From Streptomyces thinghirensis (GTDB lineage: Bacteria > Actinomycetota > Actinomycetia > Streptomycetales > Streptomycetaceae): a stretch of DNA of 64,000 nucleotides. Position 1 is the first letter of the stretch; each line of letters starts with the position of its first letter. Positions 9,641 to 60,205 of the stretch are shown in pieces. A model generated the notes under the pieces. The model was not told where the DNA came from. It was given only the letters and a program-made list of their open reading frames with translations, and did no database searches. The stretch covers positions 86,332 to 150,331 of the forward strand of contig JAKFGP010000062.1 of NCBI GenBank assembly GCA_021502835.1, read 5' to 3'. The position numbers and the translations under genes are program-made.

Positions 9641-9853
9641 GGAAGGCTCACTCATGCTCTTGTTACGAGCTCTGGGGCAGCCACGACCTCGCTCAGGTAG
9701 GACGGGACGATCAACTCGTGGGAGACCCACCTGTGCTAGGCGGCGAAGCTGGTGGCGGTCGACGCCCGGTGCGTCCGAATCCCCGGACCGGCCACGAGGA
9801 GCAGCGGCCGGCCGGCAGGAAGCCGTCCACAGGACATCGCCCCGAGTTGTGCC

Positions 9854-10696
9854 TCAGCGAAATGCGGCGATGCTACGGGCGACCCAGTCGTTGAAAAGAC
9901 GCGGAGCGCGACCGAGGACTCGTTCCACGTCCGAGCTGATCCGCAGTTCCGCGGGGTTCGGAGCGGAGATGATGTCCAGGGTGTCGTCGGCGAGCTCCGG
10001 CGGCTATCGAACTGGGTCATCGCGGCCTTGGCCTCCTCGCGGGTGAGTTCGTGGAATCGCACCGGTGAGCCGAGCGCGGCGGCGATGACCTCCGCCTGCT
10101 GACGGGGCGTGATCACCTCGGGCCCGGTCAGCTCGAAGACTCCGCCGGTGTGCCGGTCGTCCAGCAGGGCAGGCCGCAGCGACCTCGGCAATGTCCGCCG
10201 GGTCGACGATCGGAACCCCGACATCGCCGAAGGGTGCGGAGACCGTCCCTTGCGTGCGAACGGACTCCGCCCACGCCAAGGCGTTGGAGGCGAAGCCGCC
10301 CGGTCGTAGGACGGCCCAGTCCAGGCCGGATTCTCTCAACGCGTCCTCCACCGCGCGCATCGCGATCCGCGACGGGCCGAGCGGCCTGGTCGCCACGCCC
10401 TGCGAAGAAGCAGGACGACTCGGCGGACCCCGCTGGCAGTGGCCACGTCGATAAGGTCGGTCAGCCTGGCTTCGGGGGCGTGCAGGTCGCCGGACAGCAG
10501 GAGGAACAGCGCCTTCGCCCCATCCAAAGCGGCGCTGAGGCTCTGCGGCTCGGCCAAGTCAGCCGACACGTGCCGGACTCCGTCCGGCATTGCCGCCGCG
10601 TGCCGTGACACCGCCGTCACCTGCTCGCCCGCCTTGGCCAGGGCCTGCGTCAAAGGCCGGCCCACATTCCCCGGTAGCCCCGGTCACCACGATCAT
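9854..10696 (-). CDS. NmrA-like NAD(P)-binding oxidoreductase
   Basis: Atypical short-chain reductase of the NmrA/quinone-reductase type. ATG 10696, behind ribosome binding site TAGGAG, opens MIVVTGATG, the Rossmann glycine motif, and after a one-base change GRPLTQALAKAGEQVTAVSR. Then come HVSADLAEPQSLSAALDGAK, DVATASGVRRVVLL, LRESGLDWAVLRPGGFASNA and VGVPIVDPADIAEVAA. The C-terminus has GGVFELTGPEVITPRQQAEV, SSDVERVLGRAP and FNDWVARSIAAFR before the stop. About 280 residues is full length. It is divergent from an HxlR regulator at 10789, the usual arrangement for redox or electrophile-responsive pairs. Three or four frame changes are present. Substrate unknown. Confidence 0.85.
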
Positions 10697-10747
10697 GTTC
10701 AGCTCCTAGTCCGTTGTGCACTGCGGCAATTGACGCTAGAAGGCAGA

Positions 10748-10762
10748 CTTACTTTCTGTAAG
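10748..10762. promoter_or_regulatory. Candidate HxlR operator, CTTAC-N5-GTAAG
   Basis: A perfect 5-bp-arm inverted repeat with spacer TTTCT sits in the 92-base gap between the divergent NmrA-like and HxlR genes. It resembles known DUF24/HxlR-family boxes of the TAC...GTA type. A further GGTAAG half-site lies at 10775-10780, just before the HxlR start. Confidence 0.5.
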
Positions 10763-10788
10763 AACATACCCAGAGGTAAGCTCCGGAC

Positions 10789-11198
10789 ATGAGCGAAGGT
10801 GCGCAGCTGACACAGGCTGAGGCGGGCAACCGGTATAGGTGTTTCACACCGACTGCCCTGCGCGCGACGTGGTCGACCACGTGACCAGCAGGTGGGGTAT
10901 CTGGGTGCTGATCGCCTTGCGGAGCACCGACCTTCGGTTTTACGAGCTGCGCGACAGCATCCAGGGCATCAGCGAGAAGATGCTCGCTCAGACACTGCGC
11001 GCACTGGTCCAGGACGACCTGGTCTGGCGGAAGGTCGAGCCGACGACGCCACCTCAAGTCACCTACGGGCTGACTGAGTTCGGCCAGGACCTCGGTGAGC
11101 CACTGACGGACTTGTTCGACCGGATCACCCAGCGGCTGGCAGCCAGTGGGACGTCTGTCACGGACAAGCCGACCGCAGAAGCTCGACGGGTGCCGTAG
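10789..11198 (+). CDS. HxlR-family transcriptional regulator
   Basis: Winged-helix DNA-binding protein of the DUF24 class, about 136 residues. ATG 10789 gives MSEGAQLTQAEAGNRY, then a frame change, then FHTDCPARDVVDHVTSRWGI with the family-conserved N-terminal cysteine. The core is FYELRDSIQGISEKMLAQTL with recognition helix and wing VWRKVEPTTPPQVTYGLTEF, ending in a dimerisation helix. The cysteine suggests thiol-based sensing, as in YodB or HypR, but this is inference. It diverges from the NmrA-like reductase and probably controls it through the CTTAC-N5-GTAAG site. A second HxlR/NmrA pair lies at 57.1-58.3 kb. Confidence 0.85.
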
Positions 11199-11473
11199 CC
11201 CAATCCCGATCTTCGACAACAGCGCCGTGTTGCCGCCGAACGCTCACTGTCGCGGCGATCTCGCCCACCGCACACGCCAAAGCCCACGAGCGATGCCTCG
11301 TGAGCCCACGGCGTCAGCGAGCTTCCGCCAGGGGCACCAGCGTCAGAGCCCAATCACCTGTACGAGTGAGCGACTTGACCGGCCAGTCTCATATTCGTGT
11401 CACATAGGCCATCGCTTGGCCACCGCTCGTGAGATTTGGCCACCGAAATGCGAGACCGTACATCAGCGGTCTT

Positions 11474-16690: not shown

Positions 16691-16871
16691 AGTCGAACTC
16701 CGCACAGTGGGTCGGCCACTCCTGTGAGGCCCGGACCGCGACCGGGCTGTGCAGTTCACCAGCCTCGGCAAGAAGGTCATGGCCGCCGCGGCACCGTACA
16801 CCGACCAGTTCGGTGCCTCCTCCGGACCACGCCACAAGCCGAAGGCCCTCGCCTCGCCCGAGCTGCGATAG
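16500..16871. pseudogene. Mixed gene debris, possible transposase fragment
   Basis: On the minus strand near 16550-16680 a frame reads DANARHPDIVAAKRRERARI followed by RSEKGTRW, a basic stretch of the kind seen in some transposases. On the plus strand near 16745-16871 a coding-like tail reads FTSLGKKVMAAAAPYTDQFG and KPKALASPELR before a stop. Neither is long enough to name. Confidence 0.25.
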
Positions 16872-16935
16872 CCCGCAGGCATGAGCGACGTTGCATCCGG
16901 GCGGTATGCCCTGCGCGGGCCACGAGGAGTGTGGA

Positions 16936-17514
16936 TCATGGGCGAGGGCGTTCTTGGCCCGCGTCGAGGAGCTCGGTCACGAGCCGATGGGCGTACGCGG
17001 CGTCGAGTCCGGCCGGGCGGAAGAGGATGCGGTACATGATGGGGGCGACCAGGCGGTCCATCGCCGTCTCGACGTCGGGAGTGTTCTCCTCGCGGCCGAT
17101 CGCGCGGGCGAGCATGACGTCGATCTGTTCGGCCGCGTAGGCCGAGCACTGACCGGCGTTGCTGCCGTCCGGGTCGCCGAGCAGAGCGTCGCGGATGTAG
17201 GCGCGGCCGGAGGGGGACGACATCTCGTCGAGGAACTGTTCGGCCCAGGCCGTCAGGTCGGACAGCAGGTCGCCGTGGCTCTCCGGTTCAGTGTCGGGCC
17301 GCAGGCGCTCTACCGCGACGTCCGACAGCAGCTCCTGCAGGTCGCCCCAGCGGCGGTAGATCGTCGAGGGGGTGACTCCGGCGCGCTGGGCGACCAGCGG
17401 GACGGTCACCGCGTCGCGGCCCCGCTCCGACAGGATTTCGCGGACAGCGGCGTGCACCGAAGCCTGGACCCGTGCGCTGCGCCCGCCGGGGCGCACCATC
17501 GGCCTACGACTCAT
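16936..17514 (-). CDS. TetR-family transcriptional regulator
   Basis: An unbroken frame of 192 residues from ATG 17514. The N-terminal helix-turn-helix is typical: ASVHAAVREILSERGRDAVT, VPLVAQRAGVTPSTIYRRWG and DLQELLSDVAVERL. The C-terminal ligand and dimer domain includes LTAWAEQFLDEMSSPSGRAY and AMDRLVAPIMYRILFRPAGL. It is on the same strand as, and downstream of, the amidase pair. A motif in its own promoter region, CGGTTATTGCGTTTA at 17532-17546, resembles one in the amidase/MFS divergent promoter. It is therefore the likely local repressor of the amidase, MFS and MBL genes. Ligand unknown. Confidence 0.9.
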   Translation of the reverse strand: MSRRPMVRPGGRSARVQASVHAAVREILSERGRDAVTVPLVAQRAGVTPSTIYRRWGDLQELLSDVAVERLRPDTEPESHGDLLSDLTAWAEQFLDEMSSPSGRAYIRDALLGDPDGSNAGQCSAYAAEQIDVMLARAIGREENTPDVETAMDRLVAPIMYRILFRPAGLDAAYAHRLVTELLDAGQERPRP

Positions 17515-17531
17515 GACTCCACCTTAAAGCG

Positions 17532-17546
17532 CGGTTATTGCGTTTA
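17532..17546. promoter_or_regulatory. Candidate TetR operator at its own promoter
   Basis: CGGTTATTGCGTTTA lies 18 bases upstream of the TetR start codon. It closely matches CGGTTTGCGTTAA at 19337-19349 between the divergent amidase and MFS genes. Shared sites at both promoters suggest autoregulation together with control of the locus. Confidence 0.4.
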
Positions 17547-17639
17547 GGGGGAGCATGCCGGCTCGAGGGCCGCGTCAGGGCACCCTCGCCGGTCTCCCCG
17601 CTGCGGGCATCCGGTCCTGATCCCGACCGGCCGAACGGC

Positions 17640-19079
17640 CTAGGGGCCGAGCCGGGTACCGTCCGGCCCGCACGCCGCTCTCAGACGGTCGGCGCGAGCG
17701 ATCGGGCGGGCTGTGTCCGCTCGTAGGCGTGGGCCCACCCGCAGCAGTTGCCGCTCGCCGAAGGGCCGTCCGAGCAGCTGCATCCCGATCGGCATGCCCA
17801 CCGTGTCGTGGCCCACCGGGACGGACAGAGCGGGCACTCCGGTGATGTTGGCCGGGGAGGACAGACGCACGTAGGCGTCGGAGACGGCCTCGGTCGAGCC
17901 GTCGGACCAGGTGACGCTCTCCTGACCGGCCTTCACGCGGTCATCGGGACCGCCGGGGCGGCGATCACGTCGACCTTCTCCAGAAGGCGGGCCCACTCCT
18001 CCTGCATGAGCGTCCGGGAGCGCTGGGCACGCAGATAGTCGCCCGCGCCCATCAGCTCACCGGCCTCCAGGAGGATGCGGACGTCCGCCTGGTAGAGCTC
18101 GGGGACCGTACGCAGTGTGCCCTCGTGGTAGGCGGTGGCCTCCGGCACCATCAGTCCCCACTGGGTGGCCTGGATGTACCGGGTCATCGGGATGTCGATC
18201 TCGACGAGTTGGGCGCCGAGCGTCTCCAACTGCGCGATGCCCCGGCGGACGGCGGTCTCCACCTCCGCGTCGACACGGTCGAAGTAGTAGTTGCGCGGCA
18301 CCCCGACGCGCACGCCCGCCAGGTCCGGCTCCCGTTCCGGCCGGTGGTCGAAGGCGGGGGTGTCCAGCGAGGCGGGATCGCGCGGGTCGTGCCCGGCGAG
18401 GACGGTCAGGACCAAGAGCCGCGTCCTCGACGGTGCGGGCGACCGGGCCGACGTGGTCCAGCGACCAGGACAGCGACGTGACGCCGTGGCAGCGGCACCA
18501 GCCCCGTAGGTCGGCTTGAAGCCGACGACTCCGTTCAGCGCGGCGGGAACCCGGATCGACCCGCCGGTGTCGGTGCCGAGGGCGAAGGTCGCCGCCCCCG
18601 GCCGCCACCGCGACGGCGGACCCGCCGCTGGAGCCTCCCGCGACCCGGCAGCGGTCCCAGGCGTTGCCGGTCTGCGGGGTGGTCAGAGCCGTAGGCGAAC
18701 TCATGGGTGTGGGTCTTGCCGACCAGGACAGAGCCTGCGGCCCGCAGCCGGGCGGCGACCGTGCTGTCGGCGGCGGCGCGGTGGCCGGCGGACCCGGGAA
18801 CTGGCGCTGGTGGGCGATCCGGCGACGTCGATCAGGTCCTTGAGTCCGGCCGGGACGCCGTGCAGCGCGCCCCCGGAACACGCCGCGGGCCGCTTCCCTG
18901 CTCGGCCTCCCGCGCCGCGCCGCGGGCCTGCTCGGCGGTGACCGCGACGTACGCCTCGACGTTGCGGGTCCACCTGGTCGATGCGGTCGAGGACCGAGCC
19001 CACCAGCTCGACGGGGGACAGCCGGCGGGCCCCTGATCTGCTGGGCGGCGTCGGCGAGGGTCAGCTCACACGGCTGCAT
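17640..19079 (-). CDS. Amidase-signature family amidase
   Basis: Hydrolyses a carbon-nitrogen amide bond with a Ser-cisSer-Lys triad. ATG 19079 opens MQPCELTLADAAQQI. After frame changes the catalytic Lys block appears (HGVPAGLKDLIDVAG), then the Ser block RVAGGSSGGSAVAVAAG, and SLDHVGPVARTVEDAA. The C-half is continuous for 160 residues: LAGVRVGVPRNYYFDRVDAE, IPMTRYIQATQWGLMVPEAT and LLEKVDVIAAPAVPMTA. It ends MPIGMQLLGRPFGERQLLRV and a stop at 17640. About 475 residues is usual. It overlaps the small AtzG-like gene upstream and shares its strand with the TetR gene downstream. Substrate not predictable. Confidence 0.85.
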
Positions 19080-19275
19080 CGTGCTTCTCCTTTCCGGCGC
19101 GGTAGGCACCGGCGGGCGGGGGTGTCCCCGAAGTCCGCTCACGCAGGACCGCGACGACGGGTGGATGTGCTGGGCGGCGGCGGCGACCGCGGCGTGGCGG
19201 TCATCAGGGCAGCGGAAGTCCGGCACGGGCGGCCCAGCGGGCGGCCTCGGGCGGCGTGAGTTCAACGGAGGGCAC
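19066..19275 (-). CDS. AtzG-like small protein of an amidase operon
   Basis: GTG 19275 with ribosome binding site AGGAG seven bases upstream starts a protein of about 68 residues: PSVELTPPEAARWAARAGLP, LP, then after a frame change DDRHAAVAAAAQHIHP, and TPPPAGAYRAGKEKHDAAV before a stop that overlaps the amidase start by 14 bases. Short helical proteins with a DRHAAVxxxxxHI pattern and a proline-rich tail accompany amidases and, as AtzG with AtzE, stabilise the enzyme. The overlap suggests translational coupling. Two one-base changes are assumed, so the assignment rests on position and pattern. Confidence 0.6.
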
Positions 19276-19333
19276 AGGTTTCTCCTGATCAGGGGCGTGG
19301 CTGCGAAGCACTGCAGCACTCCACACTAAAAGC

Positions 19334-19349
19334 TAACGGTTTGCGTTAA
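19334..19349. promoter_or_regulatory. Candidate TetR operator in the amidase/MFS promoter
   Basis: TAACG-GTTTG-CGTTA is a perfect 5-bp-arm inverted repeat. Its core CGGTTTGCGTTAA matches the site upstream of the TetR gene. It abuts the larger palindrome that begins at 19347. Confidence 0.45.
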
Positions 19350-19377
19350 CCCGACCGTAGGACCTACGGTCGGGTTA
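19347..19377. promoter_or_regulatory. 14-bp-arm palindrome in the amidase/MFS promoter
   Basis: TAACCCGACCGTAG and CTACGGTCGGGTTA are exact inverted copies separated by GAC. The site lies between the divergent AtzG/amidase start at 19275 and the MFS start at 19411. There are no T-runs to suggest a terminator, so a regulator-binding site is more likely. Confidence 0.65.
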
Positions 19378-19410
19378 TACGCAAATCCATGCTTTTACGG
19401 AAGGAGTCCC

Positions 19411-20722
19411 ATGCCCGGCGTCGTCTCCGACGTACAACCGGTGGCCGACGCACCCGCGAACTCCGGCGCACCCTCGCACGTTGCTCACCAGGCCACCCGC
19501 ACTCGTACGTACACGAGGAGGCGCAGGGCTTCTTTCGCCCTCGACGTGTCGATACTCGCGGCCCTCCTGGCCGCGTCCAGCGCTCCGACCCCGCTCTACC
19601 CTCTCTACCAGGACCAGTGGGGCCTCTCCGCGCTCGCCGTCACCGTGGTCTTCAGCGCGTACGCCCTGGCCCTGTTGCTGGCCCTGCTCACCACCGGAGC
19701 GCTCTCCGACCACCTGGGGCGACGCCCCGTCACTGGCGAGCGCCCTGCTCATGGCGGCCGCCTCCATGGTCCTCCTGGCCTCAGCGGACGGCGCCGTCTC
19801 CCTGACCATCGCCCGGGGCCTGCAAGGTGCGGCCACCGGCGCGGCCACCAGCTTGCCGCGGGCGCGGCGCTCCTCGACCTGGAAAACCCCCGGCACCCGG
19901 GCCGGTCCGCCCTGGCCAACAGCGTCAGCCCGGTCGCCGGCATGGCCACCGGCGTGCTCGTCTCCACCCTGCTCGTCAGTTTCGCCCCCGCCCCCACCGT
20001 TACCGTCTACGTACTGCTGGCGGCGTTGTTCCTCGCCCAGGCGATCGCGGCCACCTTCGCCACGGAGACGGCCCCACCGCCACGCGGGAGCGCTGCCTGG
20101 TCGCTGCGCCCGCGGGTCGGCGTCCCACCCCGGCCCGCCGCACCCTGCTGGCCGCGGGCGCCGCCGTCGGCACCGTCTGGGCGCTGGGCGGCTTCTACTC
20201 CTCCCTCGGCCCGGCCCTCGTACGCCTGAGTGGCCCCGACGCCCCGCAAGTAACCCGCGGCATGGTCTTCTTCACCCTCAGCGCCACCGCCGCGCTCACC
20301 GTATGGGCGCTGCGGCGCAGGCCGCCCTACGCCACGGCGATCGGCGGCTGCTTGTCCGTCCTGCCCGCCGCGGCACTGACCCTGAGCGGTCTGCACGGCG
20401 CCGGGCTGCTCCGCCGTCTACGGCGGCGCGGTGCTGGCAGGCATCGCCTTCGGCGCCGTTTCCCAGGGGGCGCTGCGTATGCTCCTCGCCTCGCTCGACG
20501 AGCGGGACCGCGCCGCGACACTGGCCGCCTACTACATCCTCAGCTACCTCTCCATGAGCCTGCCCGCCGTCGCCGCGGGCGCCGCCGCCCAGCACTACGG
20601 GGCTGGGGACCGCCTCACACGCCTACACCATCACCGCCGCTCTCCTCGCCCTGGCGGCCCTGGCGGCCCTCACCGCGTCACGACGCACGGCGGCCCAACC
20701 CGAAGCCGACCGCTCCCCCTGA
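19411..20722 (+). CDS. MFS transporter
   Basis: Twelve-span major facilitator, about 430 residues, start ATG 19411 behind GGAAGGAG. A hydrophilic N-terminus of about 45 residues precedes TM1 (FALDVSILAALLAASSAPTP), then LYPLYQDQWGLSALAVTVVF, and the loop motif GALSDHLGRRPV. Later blocks include LTIARGLQGAATGAAT, NSVSPVAGMATGVLVSTLLV, VYVLLAALFLAQAIAATFAT, TRGMVFFTLSATAALTVWAL and LAAYYILSYLSMSLPAVAAG. It ends QPEADRSP with a stop at 20722. The pattern resembles MFS exporters of the YnfM/arabinose-efflux kind. Five or so frame changes occur. The MBL-fold hydrolase follows after 48 bases, so the two form an operon divergent from the amidase. Confidence 0.85.
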
Positions 20723-53088: not shown

Positions 53089-53669
53089 TCACCCGCCTTG
53101 GGCTGTGCGGCGTAGTGCGGGCGGCGCGGGCGCGGCTGCCGCAGCGGGTGGAGCACCACCGCGGCGGCGGCGGAGCAGATACCGGCTGCAGGGTCGAGCC
53201 GCAGGCGGTGAGGCGTTCGGCGTCGGGGCCGGTGAGCAGGTCGGCGGCGCTCCAGGCTGCGGCCGCCAGGGCGTGGTCGACGATCTCGGTGGTGGGTGCG
53301 TGGCGCGGTAGGGACCGTCCTTGTCGTCCCACCGCAGGAGGGGCGGGTGGGACGCGGGCCATCGCGGCCGTTGATGGCCGTGAGGGCGGCGGAAGGGCGG
53401 CCCGCCGGCGTGGGAGGCGAGCAGATCTTGATCTGCCTGCGCAGCGAGCGCAGCTGCTGGGCTGCACACATTTCCAGCATGCCGGCGTCGACCGGCGCGA
53501 GGCCGCGTTCCGTCAGCCAGCGGTTGGTGTGCGCCGGAGCTCCTCAAGCGATCGACCGTGTGCCCGCCGGGCATGACGATCGCACTGTTGGCCAGGGCCA
53601 GGGAGAGATGCCGCTCCTCCCCTTGCGCGGGCGGCGGAGCGGTCGCTCCGATCACGCAACTCCTCGCAT
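53089..53669 (-). CDS. CGNR zinc-finger regulator, copy 1
   Basis: ABATE-domain protein with a C-terminal CGNR zinc finger, about 190 residues. Near the start it reads VIGATAPPPAQGEERHLSLA, LANSAIVMPGGHTVD, where LxLVNS is the ABATE opening. Then MLEMCAAQQLRSLRRQIK and, near the end, WCSTRCGSRARAA, the CGNR-type finger (CxxxCGxRxRA). The first Cys lies in the preceding CSRYLLRR segment, in another frame. Start codon ATG 53669 needs a frame correction; GTG 53655 is the in-frame alternative. It diverges from MBL copy 1 and is homologous along its length to the CGNR protein at 58.7-59.3 kb. A DNA-binding role is inferred from the family. Confidence 0.75.
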
Positions 53670-53723
53670 AAGCCTCGTGGTACGGCTTGCATGCTTCCCG
53701 TGAGAAATGAGTTATTGTCGTCT

Positions 53724-53748
53724 CACGTTTCACCAACCCCTATCCGTG
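53724..53748. promoter_or_regulatory. CACG-N17-CGTG palindrome, copy 1
   Basis: CTCACG and CGTGAG flank 17 bases ending CTATC, just before the MBL start at 53762. The same arrangement lies before the second MBL gene. An outer repeat (CGTGAGA at 53699-53705 and TCTCACG at 53721-53727) adds a further half-site. Probable operator of the CGNR regulator. Confidence 0.55.
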
Positions 53749-53761
53749 AGGTCGTCCTTCC

Positions 53762-54562
53762 GTGTCTGCTCCTTCCGCAGCGTCCACCCCCCCCCGATCC
53801 GCGTGTTCGGCGGACCGACCGCTCCTCTTCGAGTACGGCGGTCTTGCTTCCTTGACCGACCCGACCTTTCGATGCTCCCCGGCGACCACCAGGCGCCCGC
53901 CGTGGTCCTGACCAAGACCGCCCCCTCCGCCGTCGACCCCGCCGACCTCCGACCCATCGACGTGGTGTTCTCCTCTCGCAACGGACGAGCACGCCGACAA
54001 CCTCGACACCTCCGGTCGGGCCCTGCTCGCCGACGTACCCCTCACTCTCACCACGACCCAGTGGCGGACAGCGTCTCGGCGAGGAGGCCACGGGATCGGC
54101 CGGACTGGGGGCCGCATCGAGCTCGACCGCCCCGGCGGCCGCACGCTCACGGTCACCGGCGTTCTCCGTGCCACTGTCACGGCCCCGGTCCGCGCCACGA
54201 GGTCGAGCCGGTCTGCGGCGAGGTGGTCGGTTTCATCCCGACCCGGGAGGGCCTGCCCACCGTGTACGTCAGTGGCGACAACGCCTCCGACGCTGCCGGG
54301 GGACATCGCCGAGCGCTTCGCCCCGGTGGACACCGCCATCCTGTTCGCTTGGCGCCCCGCGCTTCGCGGAGGTCTTCGACGGCGAGGTGATCGTCCTGGA
54401 CAGCGCCCAGGCCACCGAAGCCGCCCAGCTCCTCAGCGCCCGCCGCGTGGTGCCCGTCCACTACGACAGCTGGGCCCACTTCACCGAGGGCCGCACCGAG
54501 TTGGCAGCGCTTCGCCTCCGCCGGCCTGGCCGACCGTCTCGACTGGGGTCAGCGCCCTCTGA
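53762..54562 (+). CDS. MBL-fold metallo-hydrolase, copy 1
   Basis: About 265 residues from GTG 53762 (VSAPSAAS). Across frame changes it reads IRVFGGPTA, LFEYGGL, LTDPTF, VVLTKTAPSAVDPADLRPID, then the metal region HADNLDTSGRALLADVPLTL, TTT. The later part has HGPGP, GEVVGFIPTREGLPTVYVSG, DNAS, APRFAEVFDGEVIVLDSAQA and ARRVVPVHYDSWAHFTEGRT ending LAALR. The HxDNLD form of the metal motif and the closing VPVHYDSWAHF define a subgroup of actinobacterial MBL hydrolases. It is divergent from CGNR copy 1 and clearly homologous to MBL copy 2. Substrate unknown. At least five frame changes. Confidence 0.8.
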
Positions 54563-54980
54563 ACCGGGATGGCAGAGACCTCCACGGCGCCCTGTGCGTG
54601 TGCCCGCGTCCGGCCTTCGGGAACAGTGGAGCAGCCATCAGTGGTCGGGTACGACACGCCGTTCTGGCGCGAGGACGGTCTGAGCGGCTCTGGAACGCCG
54701 AGGAGTCCACCCGCGGCCGCTACGGCGGGCGGGTGGGCGCCGGCGCCTGGACCCAGTGCGGCGGCGGCCAGAATGCCGAGGTCAGGGCGCTGTTGACGGC
54801 GGCCAGCGCGGTGGCGGGCGGGGTGGCCGCCGACCTGGGCGGCGAGCAGGGCGCATACCTGTTCGCGCGGCGAGCGCAGCGTGCTACTGGTTGGCGCCCG
54901 ACGGGGTGCCCAGTGCGTCGAGGAACTGGCCACCCGGCAGGGCGGTGACGCTGTTGGCGGTCGCGGGGCAGTGCTCAGCG
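54563..54980. other. No complete gene; possible amine-oxidase scrap
   Basis: A short plus-strand segment near 54640-54690 reads VGYDTPFWREDGLSGSG, which resembles the YxxPFWRxDGLSG block of flavin amine oxidases. No FAD motif or other block accompanies it. The remaining 300 bases are Ala/Gly/Arg-rich in all frames and unassigned. Confidence 0.25.
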
Positions 54981-55490
54981 CCCGGCACGGCCGGACGGCA
55001 GCCCGGTCCACGGTCCTCCGGATACTCCGCCCGGCTCGCCGCCCACCTGGGCCTGCCTTCGCCTCGCCGCCTACCTCTCTCCCGGGCAACGCCGCCGCCG
55101 CGCTCCAGCTCTACCGCGACCGGTTCACCCCCGCAGCCGTCCTCGCCGAACCGTACTTGCCCTGGGCCAGCTTCGCTGTCATGGCGCCGCTCGACGACGA
55201 GCACGAGGCCCTGCGCCAGACACAAAGCTACCCACAGCATGATGCGCATGCTCCACGGCAGGTCCTACCTGGTGCCCACGCCCGACGAGGCCGCCTCCTA
55301 CTCCTGTACCGCCTCCGAGCAACAGGTTCTCGGCCGCTGGACCAACAGCGTCCTGCACGGCATACCGACCAGGTCACCGCGCACCTCAACCGCCTGCAGA
55401 GGCAGCCTGCCCAGACGAGATCATGGCTGATCGCCAGCGTGGGCCACACCCTCAAGCGCCCTGCACTCAACCGAACTCATCGCCGACGCC
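54981..55490 (+). pseudogene. Luciferase-like (LLM) flavin monooxygenase, C-terminal part
   Basis: The plus strand reads, across frame changes, SSGYSARLAAHLGLP, then APGNAAAALQLYRDRFTPAA, VLAEPYLPWASFAVMAPLDD, HSMMRMLHGRSYLVPTPDEA and EQQVLGRWTNSVLHG, DQVTAHLNRLQRQPAQT. This is the C-terminal half of bacterial LLM-class monooxygenases. The first 170 or so residues, with the conserved N-terminal flavin-site motif, are not found upstream. So the gene looks truncated as well as frameshifted. It lies between the MBL copy 1 and the MFS gene, inside the segment bounded by the duplicated cassettes. Confidence 0.65.
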
Positions 55491-55640
55491 TGCATTCTGC
55501 CGACCACGCCGGCCCCCGCGTCCGTTCGCTGAACGACCCCGGGCAGTTCGCGCGGGCCACCTGGCGCGCAGTCGGACGGGCACCCACGTCAGGCGCCGCA
55601 ACACCCCGCCCACAACCGTCGGGCTCGTAACGGAGACACC

Positions 55641-56983
55641 ATGCACCGCACCTCGACCACGCCACCCAGCGGGCCGACAGCCGCCCCATCGGCCGCTCCT
55701 GTTCCTGGCCCTTCGCTACCTGAGACGCAGAAGCGCATCCTGGTCATCCTGCTGGCGTCCCAGGTTCTCAGCGGCGTGGGACTCGCGGCCGCGTGTCACC
55801 GTTGCCGCCCTGCTGGCTCAGGACATGCTCCACTCCCACCACCCTGGCCGGGCTGCCCAGCGCCCTGCTCACCGCAAGGCTCCGCTCTCGCCGCCGTCAT
55901 CATCGGCCGCGTCTCCCAGACCGCGGGCGTCGCCCCGGCTGGCCGCCGGCTACCTCGCAGGCGCCCTCGGCGGTGCCGGAGTCGTCGCAGCCGCCGCCCT
56001 CGACAGCCCTGCCCTGCTGTTCATCTCCTCTTCCTCTACGGCGCCGGCACCGCCGCCAACCTCCAGGCCCGCTACGCCGGAGCCGACCTCGCCGCCCCGC
56101 GCCACCGCGCCCGTGCCCTGTCCACCGTCCTGGTCGCCCCACCACCCTGGGCGGCGTCGTCGGCCCCAACCTCACCGCCCCCGCCGGACACCTCGCCACC
56201 GCCCCTCGCGCTGCCCCCACTGACCGGCCTGTTCCTCATCTCCAGCGCCGCCTTCGCCCTGGCCGCACTCACCCTGCTCATCTGGCTGCGTCCCGACCCT
56301 CCTGCTCGCCCGCACTCTCCCCACCGAGCCGGAGACACCGAGCGCACCTGCCCCGAACCGGCACCCGACGTCCCGCGCACCACCGCACCGCCGCCCCAGC
56401 TGCCGCTGGGGGTGCTGGTCGATGGTGTCTCGCCGAACTCGTCATGGTCGCGATCATGACGATGACCCCGTGCACATGCACGACCACGGCCACAGCACCG
56501 CCGCCTCCGGCCTCGTCATAGCCCTGCACGTCGGCGCGATGACCCTGCCCTCGCCCCTGGACCAGAACACCCACCGACCGCTACGGCCCCACCGCAGTAG
56601 CCGCCGCCCTCCCGGCCTAACCCTGCTGGCCGCCGGCGTCCTCCGCCGCCGCCGCGCCCGCCGACTCGGTCCTCCCCTGCTCACCCTCGCCCTCTCATCC
56701 TGCCGGCATCGGCGGAACTTCAGCCTCCGTCAGCGGCACCACCATCATCACCAACACCGTCCCGCTCGCCACGCGGGCCAAGACCAGCAGGCAGTCGACG
56801 TCACGATCGCCATCGCCGAGCCACCGGCGAGCGTATGACCTCCGGGATCGTGGTGGCCGCAGCCAGCTACCCCTCCTCGCCCCTCACCGGCGCCGCCTTC
56901 CGCACTGGCACTCCTCCCCCGCAGTCATCGTCACTCGCCTGGTGAAGAAGTCGCCCCGCACGTCTTCCTCGGAAGACCGATAG
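55641..56983 (+). CDS. MFS transporter
   Basis: Twelve-span facilitator, about 440 residues, ATG 55641 (MHRTSTTPPSGPTAAPSAAP). TM1 is KRILVILLASQVLSGVGLAA, then VTVAALLAQDMLHS, TLAGLPSALLTA and LAAGYLAGALGGAGVVAAAA. Further parts are LLFISLFLYGAGTAANLQAR, YAGADLAAPRHRARALSTVL, GLFLISSAAFALAALTLLIW, LVMVAIMTMTPVHMHDHGHS and SGLVIALHVGAMTLPSPL. It ends with NTVPLATRAKT and VIVTRLVKKSPRTSSSEDR. A His-rich loop (HMHDHGHS) is a recurrent feature of one actinobacterial MFS group. Several frame changes. The upstream LLM and MBL genes share its strand. Confidence 0.82.
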
Positions 56984-57073
56984 GCCGGCACCGAACCTCG
57001 TCGACGCGCGCGTGGAGGAGGTGTTCATGAAGCTTTTACATCAACTTCCGCGAGGCGTACCTCCAGGCGCGCC

Positions 57074-57404
57074 CTACGCGGGATCCGGCACCTCCATGGC
57101 CCATTTCCCCATGGCCTCCAGGACATCGCGCAGCCCCCGCACCGAGAGGGGTCAGCGCGTACTCGACGCGCGGTGGGATCTCCGCGTACGTCGTGCGGGT
57201 CACCGATGCCGTGTCGCTCGAACTGCCGCAGCCGACTGGTCAGCGTATGCCGGACTATGCGTCGCCCGGGCAGGGCGGCGCGCAACTCGGTGAAGCGATG
57301 CCCGGACCGTGCAGCAGTTCACGCACGATCAGGGTGGCCCACGGTCTGTTCAACAAGGTGAGGAATCGGGCGACACCGCACTCAGGAAGGCAAGGATCAG
57401 TCAT
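57074..57404 (-). CDS. HxlR-family transcriptional regulator
   Basis: About 108 residues from ATG 57404: MTDPCLPECGVARFLTLLNR, PWATLIVRELLHGP, then after a one-base change FTELRAALPG, another, then VRHTLTSRLRQFERHGI. It ends DVLEAMGKWAMEVPDPA in the corrected frame, stop at 57074. Two N-terminal cysteines (residues 5 and 9) flank the position of the redox-sensing Cys of the family. It diverges from an NmrA-like gene across 78 bases, the same arrangement as the pair at 9.9-11.2 kb. AACT-N10-AGTT (about 57417-57434) in the gap is a weak candidate operator. Confidence 0.8.
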
Positions 57405-57482
57405 GTTTTCGACGATAACTCCATTAGTGCAGTTGATGTAACCGGTGCTTCTGCAGGCCACCTTAATGACTGTGGCCTACCT

Positions 57483-58334
57483 ATGATTCACGGCGCCACC
57501 GGCGCCCAGGGTGCACCCGTCGTCGCCACGCTCGCCGCGCTGGTGACGCCCGTGACCGCTCTGATTGTGACCCGAACGCCGCCGTGGGGGCGCGGCACGG
57601 CAGCCGCCGGCTACGGCGGCTCCATCGATCCGCACTGATCGAGGCGTACCGGGACGCCGACGGGGTGTTCGTCCACCCGCCGATGGTCTCCGAGAGGACG
57701 CCAAGGCGGCTTCACGCACGCAACATCGTGGCCGCAGTCCGCGAGGCCCGCCCCGGCCCACGTGGTGTTCCTCCACGAGCGGTGCAACCTGACCGACTCG
57801 GCGGCGCGGCAGCGGGAACTCGGCCTCCGGCCTGGCGAACAGCGGGGTGTCCCACGCCGTGATCAGCCCACACGCTGTACCTGGAGAACCTGCTCATGCC
57901 CTACGTCATCTGACGCGCGGTCCGCGAGCGCGACGCGCCGTGCCCGATCCGCACCGACCTTCCGTCTGCCCTGGACGTCCCACCTGGACATCGCCGACGT
58001 CCGCGCTCGCCCTGTTCGGACCGCCATGACGTGACCGGCCAAGTCTCTGTCGGGCAGTACCCGGCAGTCACCGGCCGGACCTGGCGGGGGCGTTCGGCGC
58101 CCACTTCGGCAAGGACGTCGTCTTCGAGCCGATCACCCCCGAGGCAGATGCGGGCTCTCGTCGCGCCCGTGATCGGCGAGGGCCTCGGCCGCCGACGTCG
58201 CCGGCCTCTACCAGGCCATGAGCACGCTGCTCCCACCGGTCGATCACACCGGAGAACTCCGCCCGTGGAAGCCGCTGCTCGGCATCACCCCCCGTACCAC
58301 CGGTCCAGTGGCTGTCCGACACTTCCGCCTCTGA
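57483..58334 (+). CDS. NmrA-like NAD(P)-binding oxidoreductase
   Basis: About 285 residues from ATG 57483: MIHGATGAQGAPVVATLAA, the Rossmann motif GATGAQG. Then, across frame changes, LIEAYRDADGVFVHPPMVSE, NIVAAVREARP, HVVF, SGVSHAVISP, LYLENLLMPYVI, SALDVP, HLDIADV and TVTGQVSVGQYPAVTG-like sequence. The C-terminus reads FGKDVVFE, MRALVAPVIGEG, YQAMSTLP and QWLSDT. The order matches full-length NmrA-like proteins. It is divergent from, and probably controlled by, the HxlR gene. Six or more frame changes. The physiological substrate is unknown. Confidence 0.8.
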
Positions 58335-58699
58335 CCACAACCACTTGTCGCTCCGGCCGAGTTCCAACCGAGGCTTCCGCCCCTGGTCGGTCCGGTCGCC
58401 TCGATCAGGTGGCCGGCCGGCCGTGTGCACTGCGCGCCGTGCGCAGCGGCAGGTCGACGCGGATCTCGACCGGCTGTCCGACCGAGAATTCAGGCAGCGC
58501 GCCGTCGCCGCAGGCCACGGCAGCTCTGGAGTCGTGGTCGCGTACGGGAGTGATCTCGTGGCCGTCCACCTACCCGCCGGTCGGCGTGGGCGCGGCTGAC
58601 CGCCGGGCCCCGCGGCCGGCGGAAACGCGCCGTCGGCGCGGGCACGCAACCTCCAGGTGAGCGGTGTGCCGCGCCGTCCCGGCGGCGCCTGGCTGATGC
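58335..58699. other. No confident gene
   Basis: A minus-strand frame near 58460-58570 reads RDHDSRAAVACGDGALPEFS followed by VGQPVEIRVDLPLRTARSAH, which looks protein-coding but is too short to name. It could be the end of a small gene downstream of CGNR copy 2. Confidence 0.3.
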
Positions 58700-59296
58700 G
58701 TCGGAACGTGGTGTCCGGTGCGGCGGGCGTAGCGCGGGGCGCGGCGCGGGCGCGGTCGCCGCAGCGGGTGGAGCACCGCTCGCGGCGACCATGCCGGAGC
58801 AAGGTAGCGGTTGCACGGGGCGGAAGGCGCAGGCGGTGAGACGCTCGGCGTCGGGGCCGGTGAGGAGGTCGGCGGCGTCGGCGGCCGCGGCGCCGCCTGG
58901 GCGTGGTCGACGAGTTCCGAGGCGGGATTGGGCATGGCAGGTGAGGGCCGCTCTTGTCGTCCCAGGCCAGCAGCGGGGCGGTGGGCACGCGGGTCAGGTG
59001 TCGTTGATCGCGTTGACGGCGGCGGGCAGGGCGGGGAGCCCCGCGACACGGGACGCGACAGCGCCCGGCCTGCTTGCGCAGGGAACGCAGCTGCGCGGCG
59101 CACATGTCGAGCATGCCCGCGTCGACCGGGGTGAGGCCCTGCTGCGTCGGCCACTGGTCGGCCCCGGCGGAGCGTACCGAGCTGGTCGACGTAGTGCCCG
59201 CCCCGGCAGCGCGACGCGCTGTTGACCAAGGCGAGTGAGGGATGCTGCTCCCGGCGCCGGCGGCAGCCCGGACCCGGTGATGACGCCCTCTTCCAT
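58700..59296 (-). CDS. CGNR zinc-finger regulator, copy 2
   Basis: About 195 residues from ATG 59296: MEEGVITGSGLPPAPG, then across a frame change HPSLALVNSASRCRGGHYVD, the ABATE opening. GMLDMCAAQLRSLRKQAG follows, then PLLAWDDKSGPHLP, LTGPDAE-like and the finger PCNRYL with LLRHGRRERCSTRCGDRARA. It aligns with copy 1 throughout (VDxGMLxMCAAQLRSLRxQ, CSTRCGxRARAA). Its 3' end is uncertain because frames change after the finger. It diverges from MBL copy 2. The two CGNR proteins are related but not identical, so the duplication is old or each copy came from a different source. Confidence 0.75.
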
Positions 59297-59319
59297 ACCT
59301 CATGGTACGATTCGTCCGC

Positions 59320-59336
59320 AACCGTGACTCACGGTT
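59320..59336. promoter_or_regulatory. AACCGTGA-C-TCACGGTT palindrome
   Basis: Perfect 8-bp-arm inverted repeat 24 bases upstream of the CGNR copy 2 start. Its half-site CCGTGA/TCACGG recurs in the CACG-N17-CGTG element downstream, suggesting two operators for one protein across the divergent promoter. Confidence 0.6.
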
Positions 59337-59373
59337 GAGCGCCATTATCCATGACACCCGCTTACAGTCGCAT

Positions 59374-59398
59374 CACGGTCAAGTTAAATCTATCCGTG
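59374..59398. promoter_or_regulatory. CACG-N17-CGTG palindrome, copy 2
   Basis: ATCACG and CGTGAT flank 17 bases ending CTATC, ten bases before the MBL start at 59409. Spacing and the CTATCCGTG right half are the same as before MBL copy 1 at 53724-53748. Confidence 0.6.
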
Positions 59399-59408
59399 AT
59401 GGCTTCTT

Positions 59409-60205
59409 GTGTCTGTTTCCCCTGCGACCACGCAGTTCCCCGTCCGCGTCTTCGGTGGCCCACGGCCCCTGTTCAGGCTACTGGCGTGCCTGCGCTTTCT
59501 GACCGACCCCACCTCGACACCCCTGCTCCTACCCGCGCCCCCAGGTGCCCCGGCCCTGACCAAGACCGCCCCTCCAACGGCTCCCCCGAAGACGTCGGTC
59601 CGTCGACGTGACGTGCCGCCTCCCACGACCAGGCACGACGACAACCTCGACAACGCCGGCCGCGCCCTGCTCGCCGATATCACTCACCCTCACCACCACC
59701 GGCGGCGGCGAACGCCCTCGGCCAGAAGGCCACCGGTCTTGCCGACTGGGAGTCCATCGAGCTGGACCGCCCCGGCGGCGGCGGTCGGCCTCACGCGGGA
59801 CCGCGCAGTCCCCGCCATCCACGGCCCCGGCACCCGCAGAAAGTCGAACCGATCGCCGGACAGGTCATCGGCTTCATCCTGGACCGGCGAGGGCCTGCCC
59901 ACCGTCTACGTCAGTGGCGACAACGCGCTCCTCGAGCCGTCCGCGAGATCGCCAACGCTTCGCCCCCATCGACACCGCGATCCTCTTCGCCGGCGCACCC
60001 CGCTTCGCGGAGATCTTCGACGGCGGACTGATCGTCCTGGACAGCGGCGCTCCGGGCCGCCGAGGCCACTCGAGACCCTGGGCGCCCGCCGCGTGGTGCT
60101 CCGTCCACTTCGACAGCTGGTCGCACTTCACCGAGGGCCGCACGAGCTGGAGGCCGCCTTCACCGCCGCGGGTCTGGCCGACCGCCCCAGCTGGCTGAGC
60201 GCAAC
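59409..60205 (+). CDS. MBL-fold metallo-hydrolase, copy 2
   Basis: About 265 residues from GTG 59409 (VSVSPATTQFPVRVFGGPR). Across frame changes it reads LRFLTDPT, LTKTAPPTAPP, the metal region DDNLDNAGRALLADI, LTLTTTGGGE, then HGPGT, GEGLPTVYVSGDNA, RFAPIDTAILFAGAPRFAEI, FDGGLIVLDS and ALGARRVV-like with HFDSW, ending LEAAFTAAGLADR. Blocks GLPTVYVSGDNA and GRALLAD are shared with copy 1. It is divergent from CGNR copy 2. The stop is placed near 60200 because frames change at the end. Substrate unknown. The sequence from 60206 to 60500 holds no gene that I can support. Confidence 0.78.

What the first reader, a model, noticed from the sequence alone, without database searches (positions are those of the whole stretch)
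53089..60205. Divergent CGNR regulator/MBL hydrolase cassette present twice
Two divergent pairs, each a CGNR zinc-finger protein facing an MBL-fold hydrolase, lie about 5.6 kb apart in the same orientation. Both protein pairs align throughout but differ in many residues. Between them lie a truncated flavin monooxygenase, an MFS transporter and an HxlR/NmrA pair, all of detoxification type. This could be a diversified sensing and hydrolysis module for two related compounds, or a composite segment built by successive insertions. I know of no described function for such a pair.
Basis: partly seen in the sequence, partly recalled or inferred. Interest (0 to 1): 0.7.

Follow-up and report, generated by a model that had tools for sequence, protein, structure and literature searches.

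The report
Zinc-finger repressor switch beside hydrolase gene
Soil bacteria such as Streptomyces carry a small gene switch in which an uncharacterised zinc-finger protein sits back to back with a hydrolase gene, and a conserved DNA tag on the hydrolase's promoter suggests what that protein binds, so its proposed role as a gene regulator can be tested directly.

Summary
In detail: two divergent ABATE–CGNR/MBL pairs lie 5.62–5.65 kb apart in the same orientation. Frames are broken across the whole window. The pairs are not recent duplicates.

The pairing is widespread: 77 of 80 close MBL loci have the CGNR gene divergent beside them. New here is a putative operator of TATCCGTGAG half-sites, lying on the predicted MBL promoter in 71 of 80 loci. 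In 150 Streptomyces-group genomes, 31 of 40 strict sites lie at an MBL start. In eight genomes with unlinked genes the operator stays with the MBL, while a CGNR gene sits elsewhere. A second CGNR class has its own operator variant, found in 3 of 150 genomes, the three with that class; this is confounded with descent.

Best reading: a dedicated, autoregulated repressor switch over a hydrolase of UlaG/NAPE-PLD-like fold, sometimes with monooxygenase, FMN reductase and MFS genes; probably inducible detoxification. Binding, inducer and substrate are untested. Paper searches listed no described DNA target for this regulator family.

The parts
53117..53669 (-). ABATE-CGNR gene, copy 1 (frame-broken; start codon read at 53669-53667)
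   Evidence: tblastn pieces 53634-53512 and 53443-53117; PF11706 fragment 22.1 bits, below the cutoff of 24; start read
53687..53749 (+). promoter/operator array of copy 1: TTGCAT 53687-53692, half-sites CCGTGA 53698, TCACG 53723, CCGTGA 53744, TATTGT 53713-53718 (spacer 20 here, 18 in most relatives)
   Evidence: half-sites 53698 and 53744; the rest read; architecture of relatives
53762..54562 (+). MBL-fold hydrolase gene, copy 1 (frame-broken)
   Evidence: tblastn; a 55-residue piece matches P0002 and P0003 at 100% identity over 96% of it; ends read
54817..55018 (-). third CGNR gene, remnant (about residues 11-97)
   Evidence: tblastn with the A144 CGNR; DNA groups with L001, support 0.984
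55014..55514 (+). LLM monooxygenase, second half only (residues 196-361)
   Evidence: tblastn with A144 and L012 LLM proteins
55662..56876 (+). MFS transporter (frame-broken)
   Evidence: tblastn with A144, L002 and L015 MFS proteins
58755..59296 (-). ABATE-CGNR gene, copy 2 (frame-broken; start codon read at 59296-59294)
   Evidence: tblastn pieces 59250-59173 and 59168-58755; start read
59320..59399 (+). promoter/operator array of copy 2: palindrome AACCGTGACTCACGGTT 59320-59336, degenerate half-site CCATGA 59349, TACAGT 59363-59368, TCACGG 59373, CCGTGA 59394
   Evidence: positions 59322, 59329, 59373, 59394; the rest read
59409..60194 (+). MBL-fold hydrolase gene, copy 2 (frame-broken)
   Evidence: tblastn 59406-60194 and 59418-60194

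Best explanation
Each pair is a self-contained regulatory cassette. The ABATE-CGNR zinc-finger protein is most likely a dedicated repressor. It recognises half-sites with the consensus TATCCGTGAG that occupy the MBL promoter: one inside the -35/-10 spacer, one usually 3-4 nt past the -10 and one about 21-22 nt further on. It thereby blocks the MBL gene and, because the first half-site also lies in the divergent and apparently leaderless CGNR promoter, its own gene too. An inducer, presumably bound by the ABATE domain, would lift repression. The MBL-fold hydrolase, close by fold to UlaG, NAPE-PLD and SaxA, then acts on that compound or a product of it. In a minority of loci the operon also carries an LLM monooxygenase, its FMN reductase and an MFS transporter, which points to oxidation, hydrolysis and export of a small organic compound. 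Shown here by sequence: pairing, operator and its position, its specificity in genomes, its retention at unlinked MBL genes, and its co-variation with regulator class. Inferred: protein-DNA binding, repression rather than activation, an inducer, and the chemistry. In this window three lineages of the cassette lie within 7 kb, two with both genes and one a remnant.
For: Pairing: 77 of 80 MBL loci have a divergent CGNR; L083 has it on the same strand; L045 and L055 have none nearby. Genomes: all 29 of 150 with an MBL at 69% identity or more also hold a CGNR at 56% or more, against 8 of the other 121. Operator: CCGTGA/TCACGG in 80 of 80 upstream windows, 2.94 per window of about 170 bp against 0.16 in flanking DNA; offsets 21-22 for 71 of 85 convergent pairs, 23-24 for 52 of 63 everted pairs. 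Promoter geometry in 71 of 80 loci, spacer 18 bp in 69 of 71, half-site at one fixed place in all 71; 0 of 4000 mononucleotide shuffles. Specificity: 40 strict sites in 34 of 150 genomes, 31 within 300 bp of an MBL start; reversed control pattern in 1 of 150 genomes; in a phylum sample 7 of 296 genomes have a site, 1 of them at an MBL. Unlinked genes: 8 of 8 lone MBL genes keep an operator pair (7 the convergent pair, L101 the everted pair only), all 8 genomes hold a CGNR elsewhere, and none of the 8 orphan CGNR loci shows such a pair. Class co-variation: strict site in 52 of 58 class-A and 0 of 19 class-B loci; class-B pattern in 3 of 150 genomes, the three whose paired CGNR is 56-57% identical to the query and that lack the strict site. 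Regulator family: PF07336 and PF11706 above cutoff in 3 of 3 relatives; four cysteines invariant in 21 sequences. Partners: MFS 15, LLM 8, SsuE 4, any of them 18 of 80 loci.
Against: No binding, expression or enzyme data exist here. The 80 loci are related, so the fixed geometry is not 80 independent observations, and the geometry pattern was written after viewing them. The eight unlinked cases reduce to two CGNR and four MBL lineages; two of the eight (G006, G054) lack the strict pattern, and for G006 the contig ends close upstream of the CGNR. Single half-sites lie near the start of some orphan CGNR genes (L089, L091). Regulator class and operator variant are confounded with descent, and the operator of G022 is identical to that of a defining locus (L037). 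Half-sites over a promoter fit repression but do not exclude activation. 62 of 80 loci show none of the LLM, SsuE or MFS partners. MBL relatives at 60-69% identity mostly lack the CGNR (8 of 12) and the strict site (10 of 12), and the 44 at 40-60% lack both. 9 of 40 strict sites lie elsewhere. 9 of 80 loci do not fit the geometry pattern. The AlphaFold model of the CGNR protein was too poor to use.
Confidence: 0.7

Rival explanations
1. The conserved half-sites are bound by another regulator or an alternative sigma factor, and the ABATE-CGNR protein does something else, for instance ligand or RNA binding.
For: No binding data. Some sources name relatives 'predicted RNA-binding Zn ribbon-like protein'. 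Strict sites occur in a few genomes away from any MBL (9 of 40 sites; 6 of 296 phylum genomes).
Against: Sites go with the CGNR-linked MBL family only and are absent at all 44 MBL relatives of 40-60% identity. 8 of 8 lone MBL genes with an operator pair are in genomes with a CGNR elsewhere. The operator variant changes with regulator class. Half-sites are palindromically arranged.
Confidence: 0.15
2. The ABATE-CGNR protein binds the sites but activates the MBL gene rather than repressing it.
For: Divergent regulators can be activators; no expression data.
Against: Half-sites lie in the -35/-10 spacer and just past the -10, where bound protein would normally occlude RNA polymerase; the first half-site also covers the regulator's own predicted promoter.
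Confidence: 0.12
3. The two pairs in the window are a local duplication that diversified for two related compounds.
For: Same order and orientation at close range.
Against: Copy 1 is closer to other species (MBL 84.7%, CGNR 78.7% to L007) than to copy 2 (72.5% and 70.8%), and the copies sit in different clades; CGNR copy 3 groups with the A144 plasmid. Only one other of the 80 loci (L012) showed a second, fragmentary MBL match within its 12.8 kb.
Confidence: 0.08
4. The cassette is under repressor control as described, but serves ordinary metabolism or signalling (for example lactone turnover) rather than detoxification.
For: The MBL model resembles lactonase UlaG and phospholipase NAPE-PLD as well as the isothiocyanate hydrolase SaxA; most loci have no LLM or MFS partner (62 of 80).
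Against: Patchy distribution (66 of 150 genomes at E<=1e-40), plasmid carriage and LLM/SsuE/MFS partners in some loci fit an accessory detoxification role.
Confidence: 0.35

Closest known systems
Jann_2411 (PDB 3h0n), founding structure of ABATE (PF07336) plus CGNR zinc finger (PF11706)
   Same: Same two-domain make-up and four zinc cysteines; 3h0n is the only PDB sequence match under E 0.001 (E=3e-6). Its authors proposed a DNA-binding transcription regulator whose ABATE domain may bind a ligand (PMC2954205, parts 1 and 2 of 4 read).
   Different: The parts read give no DNA site and name other genomic neighbours. Here a specific operator and a target gene are proposed.
MBL-fold hydrolases 3rpc, NAPE-PLD (8p90, 4qn9), SaxA isothiocyanate hydrolase (6brm), UlaG lactonase (2wyl, 2wym)
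   Different: 15-21% identity in these rows. Far below the UlaG equivalog cutoff (23.3 of 306 bits). The metal motif reads HDEHxDN in 35 of 35 aligned relatives instead of HxHxDH (that consensus is recalled).
Divergent repressor-target switches of the TetR or MarR kind (recalled, from no call)
   Same: Regulator divergent from its target, operator over both promoters, autoregulation.
   Different: The regulator belongs to the ABATE-CGNR treble-clef family, and half-sites lie about two helical turns apart in an array of three or four.
SsuE-type FMN reductase and MsnO8-family LLM monooxygenase
   Same: In the Streptomyces sp. A144 cassette the partners pass TIGR03567 (196.3 of 164.05 bits) and TIGR03558 (391.4 of 166.95 bits).
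   Different: Present in 4 (SsuE) and 8 (LLM) of 80 loci. In the window half of the LLM gene remains and the A144 and L012 SsuE queries found nothing.

Membership tests
ABATE-CGNR regulators (PF07336 + PF11706) | ABATE domain and CGNR zinc finger above Pfam cutoffs | tested here: met
   Met for 3 of 3 intact relatives, L001-L003. In the window itself one frame-broken fragment gives 22.1 bits for PF11706 (cutoff 24) and 14.8 for PF07336 (cutoff 24.4), below cutoff.
ABATE-CGNR regulators (PF07336 + PF11706) | four zinc-binding cysteines | tested here: met
   C161, C166, C179, C183 invariant in 21 aligned relatives.
ABATE-CGNR regulators (PF07336 + PF11706) | sequence-specific DNA binding | not testable with these tools
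   Indirect only: operator conservation, retention and co-variation.
MBL-fold hydrolases, PF12706 Lactamase_B_2 | Pfam gathering score | tested here: met
   P0003 65.1 and P0048 61.8 bits, cutoff 27; window fragments gave no hit.
Classical MBL metal site | HxHxDH motif (recalled consensus) | tested here: not met
   H72 D73 E74 H75, D77 N78 invariant in 35 sequences, with H135, D168 and H229 also invariant. What metal site forms is unknown.
UlaG L-ascorbate-6-phosphate lactonase | equivalog NF008688, cutoff 306 bits | tested here: not met
   23.3 and 16.5 bits for two relatives.
Metal-dependent hydrolase NF001911 | equivalog cutoff 144 bits | tested here: not met
   40.3 and 44 bits for two relatives.
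Autoregulated divergent repressor switch | operator overlaps the core promoters of target and regulator | tested here: inconclusive
   By sequence 71 of 80 loci fit on the MBL side; TACCATGA on the CGNR side in 68 of 80, start codon 13 nt on in 58 of 68. Promoters are predicted, not mapped.
Autoregulated divergent repressor switch | repression relieved by a ligand | not testable with these tools
   No expression or ligand data.

The most novel reading that the evidence does not exclude
ABATE-CGNR proteins are a separate, widespread class of ligand-controlled repressors in actinomycetes with their own operator code: half-sites about two helical turns apart, class A TATCCGTGAG and class B TTTTCCGTGA, the change perhaps set by a one-residue insertion in the zinc-knuckle loop (Thr in 19 of 19 class B, a gap in 98% of 58 class A). 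They control their hydrolase from next door or, when unlinked, from elsewhere in the genome.
Probability: 0.45. Interest if true: 0.72.

Novelty: new variant of a known kind. Interest (0 to 1): 0.57.

Why it matters
The ABATE-CGNR family was proposed in a 2009 structure paper as a DNA-binding regulator with an unknown ligand (PMC2954205). Of the 12 papers holding any of six family names I saw titles and abstract starts, plus parts of that paper; none of those titles or abstract starts announces a DNA target. A precise operator, its promoter position and a dedicated target gene turn the proposal into an experiment: a gel shift and a reporter assay could settle whether this is a repressor family. 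The cassette recurs on plasmids and in the genomes of Streptomyces and related genera, so it could be a broadly shared small-molecule response and a source of new sensor parts.

Tried and rejected
Recent tandem duplication: rejected on trees and identities. Composite of unrelated detoxification genes: partly rejected, because LLM and MFS are cassette partners. HxlR/NmrA as part of the module: no support. Possible flavin amine-oxidase scrap at 54641-54739: a recalled resemblance only; it was translated but not searched itself, and an overlapping ORF (54598-54948) gave no Pfam hit. Searching the window's own genome was impossible, as none is held. Pfam on frame-broken fragments was mostly blank. 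The CGNR AlphaFold model was unusable (mean pLDDT 45.6). The MBL model (mean pLDDT 78.5) is under pLDDT 50 at residues 74-77, so no metal geometry is claimed.

Limits of the counts. In one search the co-occurrence lists (MBL at 69% or more, CGNR at 56% or more) were typed by hand and count partial matches as present, such as the 58-residue CGNR fragment of G144 and the partial genes of G074. In one search three loci (L045, L055, L083) were left out of the classes, and the classes were set by identity to two reference proteins. The shuffles were mononucleotide. The strict pattern and the promoter pattern were written after looking, so their presence in loci L004-L083 is not an independent test; the whole-genome scans test specificity, and some of the 150 genomes may be source genomes of those loci (G001 is that of L004). 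The reversed control pattern has a site in 1 of 150 genomes and 1 of 296.

Papers: searches for the family (0 papers), and for MsnO8; PMC2954205 read in parts 1 and 2 of 4; the others seen only as listings with abstract starts.
Full report
WHAT IS IN THE WINDOW. The two divergent pairs are real. Thirteen repeat families match at a spacing of 5620-5648 nt. tblastn with intact relatives places CGNR copy 1 and MBL copy 1 within 53117-53634 (-) and 53762-54555 (+), and CGNR copy 2 and MBL copy 2 within 58755-59277 (-) and 59406-60194 (+). A third, partial CGNR gene (about residues 11-97) lies at 54817-55018 (-). It abuts residue 196 of an LLM monooxygenase whose first half is not found, and an MFS transporter follows. 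In Streptomyces sp. A144 the intact order is CGNR (divergent), MBL, LLM, SsuE, MFS. The simplest reading is that the middle segment is what remains of a third cassette that lost its MBL, half of its LLM and its SsuE gene.

QUALITY OF THE RECORD. Reading frames are broken everywhere. Long ORFs with Streptomyces-like GC3 cover 2.8% of the window against a median of 46% (range 0-76%) in 80 control loci. Against a 92%-identical plasmid stretch the window has 28 frame-shifting indels in 3.3 kb, against another (94%) 5 in 1.3 kb.

HOW THE COPIES RELATE. By DNA, MBL copy 1 is 84.7% identical to Streptomyces ochraceiscleroticus (L007) but 72.5% to copy 2. CGNR copy 1 also groups with L007 (support 0.843), CGNR copy 2 with L019, L029, L031 and L081 (0.775), and CGNR copy 3 with the A144 plasmid (0.984). 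A 55-residue piece holding part of MBL copy 1 matches proteins of S. thinghirensis and Streptomyces sp. BB1-1-1 at 100% over 96% of its length. The window thus holds three lineages of the cassette, brought together rather than made by one recent local duplication. Sequencing errors lengthen the window branches, so the exact placing of copy 2 is uncertain.

THE PAIR ELSEWHERE. Of 80 genome loci fetched with the MBL protein (the best 80 of 232 confirmed), 77 have a divergent ABATE-CGNR gene directly upstream. L083 has it on the same strand; L045 and L055 have none nearby. They come from Streptomyces, Nonomuraea, Planotetraspora, Micromonospora, Saccharothrix, Nocardiopsis and other genera. Plasmids carry it too. 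In 150 genomes of the genus group of G001 (S. coeruleorubidus), MBL relatives at E<=1e-40 occur in 66 and CGNR relatives at E<=1e-15 in 59. All 29 genomes with an MBL at 69% identity or more also hold a CGNR at 56% or more, against 8 of the other 121. Of the 12 MBL relatives at 60-69%, 4 have a divergent CGNR and 2 the strict site; the 44 at 40-60% have neither. MBL and CGNR distances correlate (r = 0.58, 77 pairs, 0 of 1000 permutations as high), which also reflects shared ancestry.

THE OPERATOR. CCGTGA/TCACGG occurs in the upstream window of 80 of 80 MBL loci, 2.94 per window of about 170 bp against 0.16 in flanking DNA. The extended consensus is TATCCGTGAG; 71 of 85 convergent pairs are 21-22 nt apart and 52 of 63 everted pairs 23-24. 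In 71 of 80 loci the half-sites have a fixed relation to a -35/-10-like promoter of the MBL gene: spacer 18 bp in 69 of 71, the first half-site at one fixed place in the spacer, the second 3-4 nt past the -10 in 61 of 71. No such arrangement appears in 4000 mononucleotide shuffles. On the other strand TACCATGA occurs in 68 of 80 loci, with the CGNR start codon 13 nt from its first base in 58 of 68, which suggests a leaderless CGNR transcript whose promoter contains the same first half-site. Both window copies keep the array: 53698, 53723 (five of six bases) and 53744 for copy 1; 59349 (degenerate), 59373 and 59394 for copy 2, with a further palindrome at 59320-59336.

SPECIFICITY. The pattern TCACGGWT-N7-13-AWCCGTGA has exactly one site in each of 5 genomes reached through loci, at coordinates that match the pair in all five. 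In 150 genomes there are 40 sites in 34 genomes, against 1 genome for the reversed control pattern. Of the 40 sites, 31 lie within 300 bp of an MBL start and 9 do not. In a phylum-wide sample 7 of 296 genomes have a site, and only that of G001 is at an MBL found.

TWO TESTS THAT BEAR ON THE REGULATOR. First, unlinked genes. Six genomes of the sample (G006, G012, G054, G068, G102, G109) and two more (those of L045 and L055) have the MBL without a CGNR neighbour. All eight MBL genes keep a pair of half-sites at the usual spacing (seven the convergent pair, L101 of G054 the everted one only; the strict pattern is met at four of the six sample genomes). All eight genomes hold a CGNR elsewhere, and none of the eight orphan CGNR loci shows a pair, although L089 and L091 have a single half-site near the start. 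For G006 the contig ends close upstream of the CGNR, so its upstream region is barely tested. The eight reduce to two CGNR and four MBL lineages. Conversely, of four genomes with a close CGNR match but no close MBL, three have it cut short or in pieces (G041, G144, G145), while that of G051 is longer. Second, class co-variation. In 19 loci the CGNR belongs to a second class (53-58% identity to the references). There the strict site occurs in 0 of 19, against 52 of 58 for class A, and the half-site tends to read TTTTCCGTGA. A class-B pattern occurs in 3 of 150 genomes, G022, G112 and G134, the three whose paired CGNR is 56-57% identical to the query and that have no class-A site at the MBL. Class B also has an extra Thr in the zinc-knuckle loop (19 of 19; a gap in 98% of 58 class A), one of 21 class-fixed differences in that alignment. 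All this is confounded with descent, and the operator of G022 is identical to that of L037, one of the loci that defined the pattern.

THE HYDROLASE AND ITS PARTNERS. MBL relatives pass PF12706 but not the UlaG or NF001911 equivalog cutoffs. The model (mean pLDDT 78.5) is closest in fold to 3rpc, NAPE-PLD, the isothiocyanate hydrolase SaxA and UlaG. The motif usually written HxHxDH (recalled) reads HDEHxDN here, with H72, H75, D77, N78, H135, D168 and H229 invariant in 35 sequences, so the metal site may be unusual. In 18 of 80 loci at least one of MFS (15), LLM (8) or SsuE (4) lies on the MBL strand in the locus. LLM and SsuE of A144 pass their NCBIfam cutoffs.

MECHANISM. Shown by sequence: pairing, operator, its position, specificity, retention and co-variation. 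Inferred: the CGNR protein binds these half-sites; binding blocks both promoters; a ligand, probably in the ABATE domain, releases it; the MBL then hydrolyses a toxic or signalling compound, helped in some strains by oxidation and export. Repression is favoured over activation because of where the half-sites sit. Substrate and inducer are unknown.

KNOWN AND NEW. The family's founding structure paper (PMC2954205, parts 1 and 2 of 4 read) proposed a DNA-binding, ligand-responsive regulator; no DNA site is given in the parts read. Five searches of the open-access library listed no paper whose title or abstract start announces a DNA target for ABATE-CGNR proteins; most subscription papers are not in that library. 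The general plan, a divergent autoregulated repressor and its target, is well known; the regulator family, operator and target are what is new.

Noticed in passing
window 1-64000: The whole window is frame-broken, about 4-10 indels per kb against two close relatives, so any pseudogene claim from this record is unsafe.
   Followed up: partly
window 54817-55018 and 55014-55514: CGNR-3 remnant abutting the second half of an LLM monooxygenase: looks like a deletion joint that removed an MBL gene and half of the LLM.
   Followed up: partly
window 9766-11207: An NAD(P)H-binding (NmrA-like) / HTH (HxlR-like) divergent pair, 94-95% identical in DNA to Streptomyces plasmids.
   Followed up: no
window 16750-20000: TetR regulator, amidase and MFS segment, 93% identical to a plasmid of Streptomyces sp. 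NBC_01334; the window may be plasmid-borne or from a chromosome arm.
   Followed up: no
L001:5233-5838: On the A144 plasmid a shorter MBL-fold gene lies directly downstream of the CGNR gene on the same strand.
   Followed up: no
L012:192-575: A second, fragmentary MBL match lies about 5.4 kb upstream of the main one in Streptomyces lavendofoliae, the only other close double among the 80 loci.
   Followed up: no
L019, L020, L026, L029, L031, upstream of the MBL: Extra half-site-like words further towards the CGNR gene, so arrays of more than three half-sites seem to exist.
   Followed up: no
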